NCBI RefSeq assembly: GCF_900119085.1
Contig: NZ_FPIQ01000012.1
Location: 1-64,000, forward strand
Reading direction: 5' to 3'
DNA from: Nitrosovibrio sp. Nv17
GTDB taxonomy: Bacteria; Pseudomonadota; Gammaproteobacteria; Burkholderiales; Nitrosomonadaceae
DNA: 64,000 bases
The notes beneath the pieces were generated by a model. That model was not told where the DNA came from. It saw only the letters and a program-made list of their open reading frames with translations, and searched no databases. Made by a program: the position numbers and the translations under genes. Positions 1 through 989 of the stretch are shown piece after piece (within the stretch, counting starts at the first letter, position 1; each line of letters starts with the position of its first letter).

Positions 1-342
1 TGGCCGATCTTTGGGCCGACGCACCTGCCGCTGGTGGCTGAAGGGGTCCTGCTGTCGGTGGCCGACTACACCGGCTTCCTGTACGTGCGCACCGGCACGC
101 CGGAATACGTGCGGCTGATCGAACAAGGGTCGTTGCGCACATTCGGAGGCCACACCACCGTGATTGCCTCCTTCTTTGCGGCATTCGTCTCCATGCTCAT
201 GTTCACGGTATGGTGGTACTTTGGCAAACTGTACTGCACCGCGTTCTACTACGTGAAAGGCCCGCGCGGGCGCGTCAGCATGAAGAACGACGTCACCGCA
301 TTCGGCGAAGAAGGCTTTCCGGAGGGGATCAGGCAGCACTGA
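1..342 (+). CDS. amoA: Ammonia monooxygenase subunit A, C-terminal part (cut by window edge)
   Basis: Membrane subunit of the copper-dependent ammonia/methane monooxygenase family, which oxidises ammonia to hydroxylamine. The open frame runs in from base 1 and gives 113 residues; family members are about 270 residues, so roughly the last 40% is present. Diagnostic stretches are [31 protein letters not shown], a membrane helix around [18 protein letters not shown], and the C-terminal [15 protein letters not shown]. These are AmoA hallmarks (PmoA is similar but diverges here), and the wording resembles Nitrosospira/Nitrosomonas AmoA from memory. The tail ends in RQH. In known ammonia oxidisers amoA is followed by amoB; here it is followed by an unrelated exported protein after 86 bp. 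An upstream amoC cannot be seen. Confidence 0.93.
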
Positions 343-369
343 TCATACCGATGAATCGCTCGTGGAATC

Positions 370-397
370 CCTGCCGTTTGCTGTCGGTGGCGGCAGG
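370..397 (+). terminator. Small hairpin between amoA and the next gene
   Basis: CCTGCCG at 370-376 pairs with CGGCAGG at 391-397 across a 14-base loop, 28 bases after the amoA stop. No T-run follows, so it may be an mRNA-stabilising or processing hairpin rather than an intrinsic terminator. Confidence 0.3.
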
Positions 398-428
398 AAT
401 CCCGGGCGCGCAGAACGAGGAGGAATGA

Positions 429-989
429 ATGAAGGCCGGACGAGCGATCCAGGCGGGCATGGGTGCGCTTGCCATGACCGTATTGCTTCATTGCGGCGTG
501 GCGGGCGCACACGGCAAGGTGACCATCGAAGAGGATGCATGCGTTCGACGGGGCGGTGACAACAGCCTGGTGCACCTGAGTGTCTACCAGCCGCAGTATG
601 AGCCGGGTGACGAGTACTGTACGGAGATACCCCGGGAAGGCGAGGCGTTTCTGGTCGTGGATCTCGTGGATCAGGCACTGCGCGACATTCCAGTCGCTGT
701 GCGCGTGGTGCGGGGAATTCACGAGGCGGAAGCCGAAACGGTGGCGTACTTGCACCCGAGTCACCATCCCGATGGGGTCATCAGGGGGGAAGCCAGCCTG
801 GATCAGGGCCTGTACACCGTGTTCATCACGGGCGATGCGGTGCCGCCCGTACGCTACCAGTATCCGCTGCGCGTGAAAATGGTGAACTATGCCGAAGTCT
901 TGCGATCCCTGGTGGCACCGCTCATCACGGCAGCGGTATTGATGCTGTTGGGATATCAGATACTGAGGTCGAGACGGAAAGACGGCTGA
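429..989 (+). CDS. Exported, C-terminally membrane-anchored protein of unknown function beside amoA
   Basis: A 186-residue protein I cannot assign to a named family. Residues 1-27 form a signal peptide ending GVAGA before HGKVTIEED, so the predicted mature protein starts with His-Gly. The periplasmic part (about 28-155) has two cysteines (DACVRR, DEYCTEIP) that could form a disulfide, and a LHPSHH histidine cluster. Residues about 158-178 form one membrane helix (LVAPLITAAVLMLLGYQIL) followed by a basic tail (RSRRKDG). The signal-periplasmic-anchor topology recalls AmoD/PmoD proteins of amo/pmo operons, but I do not see their copper motif. A mature N-terminal histidine also occurs in AmoB and CopC, where it binds copper; extending that here is inference. 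A strong ribosome site (GAGGAGGAA) precedes ATG 429. The gene sits 86 bp after amoA on the same strand, so cotranscription is likely. Confidence 0.75.
   Translation: MKAGRAIQAGMGALAMTVLLHCGVAGAHGKVTIEEDACVRRGGDNSLVHLSVYQPQYEPGDEYCTEIPREGEAFLVVDLVDQALRDIPVAVRVVRGIHEAEAETVAYLHPSHHPDGVIRGEASLDQGLYTVFITGDAVPPVRYQYPLRVKMVNYAEVLRSLVAPLITAAVLMLLGYQILRSRRKDG

What the first reader, a model, noticed from the sequence alone, without database searches (positions are those of the whole stretch)
1..989. amoA followed by an unknown anchored exported protein instead of amoB
The first gene is clearly the AmoA C-terminus. In described ammonia oxidisers amoA is followed by amoB. Here the next gene, 86 bp on and with a strong ribosome site, encodes a 186-residue protein with signal peptide, periplasmic domain, two cysteines and a C-terminal membrane anchor. 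The predicted mature N-terminus is His-Gly, the same feature that gives AmoB and CopC their copper-binding histidine. This may be a separate amoCA copy with an accessory factor, or a rearranged operon.
Basis: partly seen in the sequence, partly recalled or inferred. Interest (0 to 1): 0.72.

Follow-up and report, generated by a model that had tools for sequence, protein, structure and literature searches.

The report
Ammonia-oxidation operon lacking amoB
A bacterium that lives by oxidising ammonia carries an extra copy of its ammonia-oxidation operon in which one of the three enzyme genes (amoB) is missing and a gene for a known copper-protein family follows directly, a rare variant that may be a stage in how these duplicated operons change.

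Summary
Confirmed: window base 1 is a contig end inside amoA; the last 113 codons are followed after 86 bp by a 186-codon gene with a strong ribosome site, and amoB is not between them. The gene is not unknown: it is AmoE of the PmoD/AmoD/AmoE copper-protein family (PDB 6cpd by sequence and predicted fold); paralogues sit directly behind amoB in the same genome. What is unusual is the locus. Gene order in 7 of 7 relatives shows that contigs C40 (aroA-cmk-rpsA-ihfB-pyrF-amoC-amoA 5') and C8 (amoA 3'-amoE-HxlR-folB-plsY-tsaD) face each other, so the genome has amoC-amoA-amoE between pyrF and folB, with about 58 amoA codons unassembled. One other Nitrosospira genome (MGR_bin150) has the amoA-amoE junction; a third has amoC, an amoA remnant, then amoE. 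Among 80 amoE-type loci in named genomes, amoC stands directly in front in 30, amoB in 21, amoA in one. amoCAE thus looks like a rare form between known amoCABED and amoCE. AmoE is under purifying selection but has Leu where CuA-forming PmoD needs Met. Most likely the unit supplies extra AmoC and AmoA (AmoB from other copies) plus a copper-handling assembly factor; the function is inferred, no expression data exist.

The parts
1..342 (+). 3' part of amoA (113 codons and stop); codons 164 onward of a 274-codon reference; ends ...EGIRQH where relatives end ...EGIK
   Evidence: Pfam AMO 5.7e-38; tblastn 93.7% to the G012 AmoA, q164-274; contig end at base 1
343..428 (+). 86-bp spacer between amoA and amoE, with ribosome site AGGAGG at 418-423; no amoB remnant above shuffles, no terminator-like site
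   Evidence: RNA fold z -0.72
429..989 (+). amoE-type gene (PmoD/AmoD/AmoE family): presumed signal peptide 1-27, periplasmic cupredoxin domain, C-terminal membrane helix; motif Cx8LxHx14C
   Evidence: 6cpd PmoD: phmmer 4.7e-7, profile 5.8e-13, Foldseek 3.5e-10; pN 0.17-0.19 against pS 0.60-0.75
1029..1463 (-). HxlR-type regulator gene, convergent with amoE; absent between pyrF and folB in the seven relatives looked at
   Evidence: Pfam HxlR 6.2e-17; no match printed in L148-L154
1599..1955 (-). folB, first gene of the conserved downstream flank
   Evidence: Pfam FolB 2.9e-29; synteny in 7 of 7 fetched relatives
2067..2678 (+). plsY, conserved downstream flank used as synteny anchor
   Evidence: Pfam G3P_acyltransf 6.4e-52
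2673..3848 (-). tsaD, conserved downstream flank
   Evidence: Pfam TsaD 5.1e-95

Best explanation
The window starts inside an extra amo locus, amoC-amoA-amoE, without amoB and amoD, between pyrF and folB in a Nitrosospira-group ammonia oxidiser (group inferred from named records that match its same-genus relatives). Shown: the amoA-amoE junction, its recurrence in one more genome, the facing of contigs C40 (amoC-amoA 5') and C8 (amoA 3'-amoE) by conserved gene order, the family of the 186-aa protein, and purifying selection on it. Inferred: the genes form one transcript; AmoC and AmoA made here assemble with AmoB from the other amo copies into ordinary ammonia monooxygenase; AmoE, a periplasmic cupredoxin held in the membrane, helps copper loading, assembly or stability. 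Because the Met of the PmoD CuA site is Leu here, a CuA centre is unlikely in this protein. The locus most likely came from an amoCAB-E-type copy by loss of amoB; loss of amoA as well would give the known amoCE units.
For: PmoD match by sequence and fold. Paralogues behind amoB in the same genome. Synteny: rpsA and plsY lie 3.1-3.9 kb apart on one strand in 7 of 7 relatives that have a full match to both (8 searched; G007 has neither), and the flanks of C40 and C8 together rebuild that order with amo genes in the middle (flank genes named by Pfam). The other amo contig ends are explained by other loci: C50+C26 lone amoC, C18 the amoCAB copy without ED, C12 and C16 amoCABED-copCD ends. Second genome with amoA-amoE. 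amoC, amoA remnant, amoE contiguous in G012:C2. Purifying selection on amoE and on the amoA 3' part. C40 amoC 97.8-99.0% identical to the partial copies on C50, C18 and C26, while two other lone amoC genes are 85% and 78%.
Against: About 58 amoA codons between C40 and C8 are unassembled, so nothing reads across. No expression data. Only 1 of 80 amoE loci from named genomes has amoA in front, and in G012:C2 amoA is a remnant, which also fits decay. No amoB trace in the window's spacer, so loss of amoB in place is inferred from relatives. The likeness of the G000 and G018 spacers is not unique: G000 also scores above most shuffles against sequence upstream of a stand-alone amoE (NpAV, 2 of 500) and of an amoC-amoE unit (Nl5, 4 of 500), but not against G012:C2 (110 of 500). 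The window's amoE branch in the tree is long.
Confidence: 0.6

Rival explanations
1. A decaying relic: amoC and amoA persist only because gene conversion with the intact copies keeps restoring them; the unit has no job of its own.
For: In G012:C2 the amoA between amoC and amoE is a short remnant (74% over 100 bp). A broken amoA-amoB-amoE copy stands at a contig end in G020 (L083). Long-lasting concerted evolution of amo genes is in print (PMC6053082 section 7). amoA with amoE is rare (1 of 80).
Against: amoE, which lies outside the near-identical part, is under purifying selection (pN 0.17-0.19, pS 0.60-0.75 against six homologues) and has a strong ribosome site. amoA 3' part is intact (pN 0.034, pS 0.479).
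Confidence: 0.27
2. The gap between C40 and C8 hides more than the middle of one amoA, for example a tandem with a whole amoCAB followed by a second amoA and amoE.
For: C40 and C8 do not overlap; repeats longer than a read are not resolved in this assembly.
Against: One amoA explains both ends with about 58 codons missing. G012:C2 has amoC, amoA remnant and amoE in one contig without amoB.
Confidence: 0.08
3. The amoA-amoE junction is a chimera made by the assembler at a repeat.
For: The contig starts inside a gene that has near-identical copies.
Against: The same junction is in an independent genome (L156), and C8's amoE is only 61% identical to the operon amoE, so it is not a mix of those. 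In L156 the contig starts 127 bases before the first base after the amoA stop and its record name holds k127, as expected for a true branch at that base (inference).
Confidence: 0.03

Closest known systems
amoCABED(-copCD) operon of betaproteobacterial ammonia oxidisers
   Same: amoC, amoA and amoE in the same order and strand (amoC by synteny)
   Different: amoB, amoD and copCD are missing; an HxlR-type gene and folB follow
amoCE unit (e.g. N. ureae Nm10 in Table 1 of PMC4940428)
   Same: amoC and amoE together without amoB; in five of the 30 amoC-amoE loci HxlR follows amoE
   Different: amoA stands between amoC and amoE here; HxlR is convergent here, co-directional in those five
PmoD of Methylocystis sp. 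Rockwell (PDB 6cpd)
   Same: signal peptide, cupredoxin domain with two conserved cysteines, C-terminal membrane helix; linked to copper monooxygenase genes
   Different: Cx8LxHx14C instead of the CuA-forming Cx7MxHxnC; phmmer aligns only residues 46-96 of the window protein

Membership tests
PmoD/AmoD/AmoE copper-protein family | N-terminal signal peptide, periplasmic domain with two strictly conserved Cys, C-terminal membrane helix (as given in PMC6189053) | tested here: met
   C38 and C64 invariant in 36 rows; helices 3-21 and 154-184 in the model; signal peptide inferred, no predictor run
PmoD/AmoD/AmoE copper-protein family | Sequence and fold relation to a characterised member | tested here: met
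   6cpd: 4.7e-7, 5.8e-13 by profile, Foldseek 3.5e-10, TM 0.74 by target length
PmoD/AmoD/AmoE copper-protein family | CuA-type ligand set Cx7MxHxnC (defines the CuA-forming subset only) | tested here: not met
   Window has Cx8LxHx14C; of 36 rows a pattern count gave Cx7M 17, Cx8M 12, Cx8L 3 (window among them), Cx7K 2, 2 not parsed
PmoD/AmoD/AmoE copper-protein family | Binds copper | not testable with these tools
   needs purified protein
amoCABED operon | amoB between amoA and amoE | tested here: not met
   86-bp spacer; no amoB trace above shuffles
amoCABED operon | amoC upstream of amoA | tested here: met
   C40 carries amoC-amoA 5' and faces C8 by synteny; the middle of amoA is unassembled
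amoCABED operon | amoD directly after amoE | tested here: not met
   HxlR-type gene at 1029-1463 (-) instead
amoCE unit | amoC directly in front of amoE | tested here: not met
   amoA stands directly in front

The most novel reading that the evidence does not exclude
AmoC and AmoA from this locus form a B-less complex in which the single-cupredoxin, membrane-anchored AmoE with its His-Gly mature end stands in for the two-cupredoxin AmoB: a minimal alternative copper monooxygenase or a dedicated assembly intermediate.
Probability: 0.04. Interest if true: 0.85.

Novelty: new variant of a known kind. Interest (0 to 1): 0.4.

Why it matters
It adds a rare amoCAE arrangement to the known amoCABED, amoCAB, amoCE and lone amoC, and suggests a path between them. 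A natural locus that keeps amoC and amoA with the PmoD-type protein but lacks amoB points to a working link of AmoE with AmoC and AmoA, which can be tested; the role of PmoD-type proteins is called undetermined in PMC6189053. The Met-to-Leu change gives a concrete test of whether a CuA site is needed for that role.

Tried and rejected
Misassembly: rejected because of the second genome and the synteny. Unknown family: rejected; no Pfam or NCBIfam model fires up to E 10, but PmoD is found in the PDB. AmoE as a shortened AmoB: profile comparison probability 4%, only the signal-peptide/HG stretch. amoB remnant in spacers, 40 bases against the amoB start of five relatives (a sixth, G007, was not found by my pattern), 2000 mononucleotide shuffles each: G000 798 to 1599 shuffles reach the score, G018 157 to 827, G012:C2 3, 3, 5, 303 and 1781 (3 against its own canonical copy); so only G012:C2 has a possible trace. 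Special RNA structure in the spacer: z -0.72. Promoter or terminator pattern inside 343-428: none. HxlR as an inherited partner of this very unit: the tree places the window's HxlR beside an unlinked copy (84/70), not with the amoC-amoE-HxlR type; open. Viral contigs: 8 pattern matches, none a relative. Plasmids: 3 records, one of them amoC-amoE. Papers in the held open-access library: 'amoCA' with amoB and Nitrosospira 0, 'amoCE' 1, 'without amoB' with Nitrosospira and amoA 0, HxlR with ammonia-oxidizing bacteria and amo 0. Rows dropped before the amoE tree: one truncated amoD and two short pieces of the broken amoE of L083, the C16 operon amoE (near copy of the C12 one), and identical duplicates. 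In one search my labels 'operonD' and 'operonE' are swapped against the papers' names.

Full report
What is there. The window is contig C8 from its first base, in a 2.84-Mb genome of 56 contigs, listed as 99.8% complete. Bases 1-342 are the end of amoA. After 86 bp and an AGGAGG site comes a 186-codon gene at 429-989, then a convergent HxlR-type gene (1029-1463) and folB (1599-1955). AmoA ends ...EGIRQH here; in G012 the canonical AmoA ends ...EGIK and its stop overlaps the amoB start.

What the second gene is. No Pfam or NCBIfam model matches, but phmmer finds PmoD (6cpd, E 4.7e-7, residues 46-96), a profile of 36 relatives finds it at 5.8e-13, and the AlphaFold2 model (mean pLDDT 79.8; the other four models 58 to 68) has 6cpd as best Foldseek match, 3.5e-10. 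In the same genome a 61% identical paralogue follows amoB on C12 and on C16, with a second, distant paralogue (30%) behind it; a further stand-alone paralogue (66%) is on C21. By PMC6189053 (passages) and PMC4940428 (passages) the gene right behind amoB is amoE and the next amoD, so the window gene is an amoE.

Ligands. In Methylocystis PmoD the CuA site uses Cys41, Met49 and His51, and Met49 to Ala abolishes it (PMC6189053 section 7, read). The profile alignment puts window C38, L47 and H49 at these places, with one more residue in the loop. Of 36 rows a pattern count gave Cx7M 17, Cx8M 12, Cx8L 3 with the window among them, Cx7K 2, and 2 not parsed. A CuA site of the PmoD kind is therefore unlikely in this protein (inference). 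The mature His-Gly end is conserved in at least 90% of the 36 rows; its role is unknown.

Where amoC is. In the own genome amoA is found only as a 5' part on C40 and a 3' part on C8, amoB only as two 3' ends on C12 and C16, amoC at six places. Flank genes of these contig ends were compared with 18 amoCAB regions of six relatives with 1 to 4 contigs, and with further amoC and amoE regions. C50 and C26 are the two sides of a lone amoC between lolA and ftsK. C18 is the upstream side of the amoCAB copy that lacks ED (6 of 6 relatives; in two of them an 18-residue piece behind amoB matches, no whole amoE). C12 and C16 are amoCABED-copCD ends. The flanks of C40 and C8 matched none of these regions except by their amo and HxlR genes. 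I then looked for plsY (C8) and rpsA (C40) in eight relatives: each has a full match in the same 7 of 8 (G007 has neither), 3.1-3.9 kb apart on one strand. The seven fetched regions all read aroA-cmk-rpsA-ihfB-pyrF ... folB-plsY-tsaD-rpsU (in two of them ihfB matched only on its other strand's frame), with no amo match printed between pyrF and folB at E 1e-3 (genes named by Pfam). C40 carries aroA to pyrF, then amoC and 105 codons of amoA, and ends there; C8 carries amoA from codon 164, amoE, HxlR, folB and so on. The two ends thus face each other, and the locus is amoC-amoA-amoE with about 58 amoA codons unassembled.

Recurrence. Of 101 genomes searched (the own included) 62 have a match to the window protein. 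In G018 amoA stands directly before amoE, again at a contig start; the named record is MAG Nitrosospira sp. MGR_bin150, contig k127_2478910, with identical sequence over the 2000 bases compared. That contig begins 127 bases before the first base after the amoA stop, as expected if the assembler's word length was 127 and the amoA end is identical in all copies up to the stop (inference from the record name). The spacers of G000 and G018 are alike (score 32, mean of shuffles 17.3, 0 of 500), but G000 also reaches 2 of 500 and 4 of 500 against sequence upstream of amoE in NpAV and in the Nl5 amoCE unit, and 110 of 500 against G012:C2, so this alone does not show a shared origin of the junction. 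G012:C2 has amoC 99.4% identical over 176 bp to its canonical copy, then an amoA 3' remnant (74% over 100 bp, E 5e-11), a possible trace of the amoB start, then amoE. The scan of named genomes gave 131 relatives, of which the best 80 were kept. Directly in front of amoE stands amoC in 30 of 80, amoB in 21, a divergent HxlR gene in 12, amoA in 1, and nothing found in 16, six of these with under 700 bases of room. So amoCAE is rare and lies, in gene content, between amoCABED and amoCE.

Selection and tree. Window amoE against six homologues: pN 0.174-0.194, pS 0.603-0.749; amoA 3' part against G012: pN 0.034, pS 0.479. In a tree of 41 rows (34 amoE-type, 7 amoD-type) the window gene falls in a group of 24 rows (97/95) apart from the in-operon amoE genes, next to the stand-alone amoE of Nitrosospira sp. 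56-18 (L021, 83/90) and near those of G018 and G012:C2; its branch is long and its place unsure. C40's amoC is 97.8-99.0% identical to the partial copies on C18, C26 and C50, while two other lone amoC genes are 85% and 78%, which fits continued gene conversion; long-lasting concerted evolution of amo genes is described in PMC6053082 (section 7, read).

How it most likely works (inferred). One transcript gives AmoC, AmoA and AmoE; AmoB comes from the other copies; AmoE, held in the membrane with its cupredoxin domain outside, helps to load copper into, assemble or steady the enzyme. PMC6189053 lists electron supply, copper loading and structural stabilisation as possible roles of PmoD and calls the role undetermined. 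The main rival is a relic kept alive by gene conversion. The bold reading, an AmoB-less enzyme with AmoE in AmoB's place, has no direct support but is not excluded.

Novelty. PMC4940428 Table 1 (passage) lists amoCABED, amoCAB, amoCE and amoC; PMC4964001 (passages) lists amoCABED-copCD, amoCAB and three amoC singletons for N. briensis. I found no amoCA-amoE without amoB in the searches and 72 of the held library. It is a new variant of a known kind.

Noticed in passing
L243 (NZ_CP133084.1:7795-16238), amoC 3050-3865, next gene 3965-4516: A plasmid of Nitrosomonas sp. sh817, typed as conjugative, carries an amoC-amoE pair near an integrase gene and an arsenic resistance gene, so amoCE units can sit on mobile DNA.
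   Followed up: partly
window 1029-1463 and L159-L168, L170, L171, L173-L175, L177, L180: HxlR-type genes neighbour amoE in 17 of 80 loci: 12 divergent in front, 5 behind amoC-amoE, and convergent in the window. A regulator of amoE-type genes is a possible reading; no paper was found.
   Followed up: partly
L083 (G020:C2 end), 5966-8729 (-): A broken extra amoA-amoB-amoE-amoD copy at a contig end: amoA and amoE in pieces.
   Followed up: no
L013 and L014 (G000:C12 end, G000:C16 start): Two contig ends are 99.97% identical over the 3500 bases compared: two amoB-amoE-amoD-copCD copies kept alike.
   Followed up: no
L018 (G000:C42:6000-20000), behind the lone amoC: Translations of the stretch behind this divergent lone amoC (85% to C40) show recurring motifs, which suggests short DNA repeats there.
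   Followed up: no
L231 and L234 (MAG Nitrospira sp. palsa_1310): amoE-type genes 52-53% identical to the window's in a record titled Nitrospira, in L231 followed by amoD-type matches; comammox amo or bin mixing not decided.
   Followed up: no
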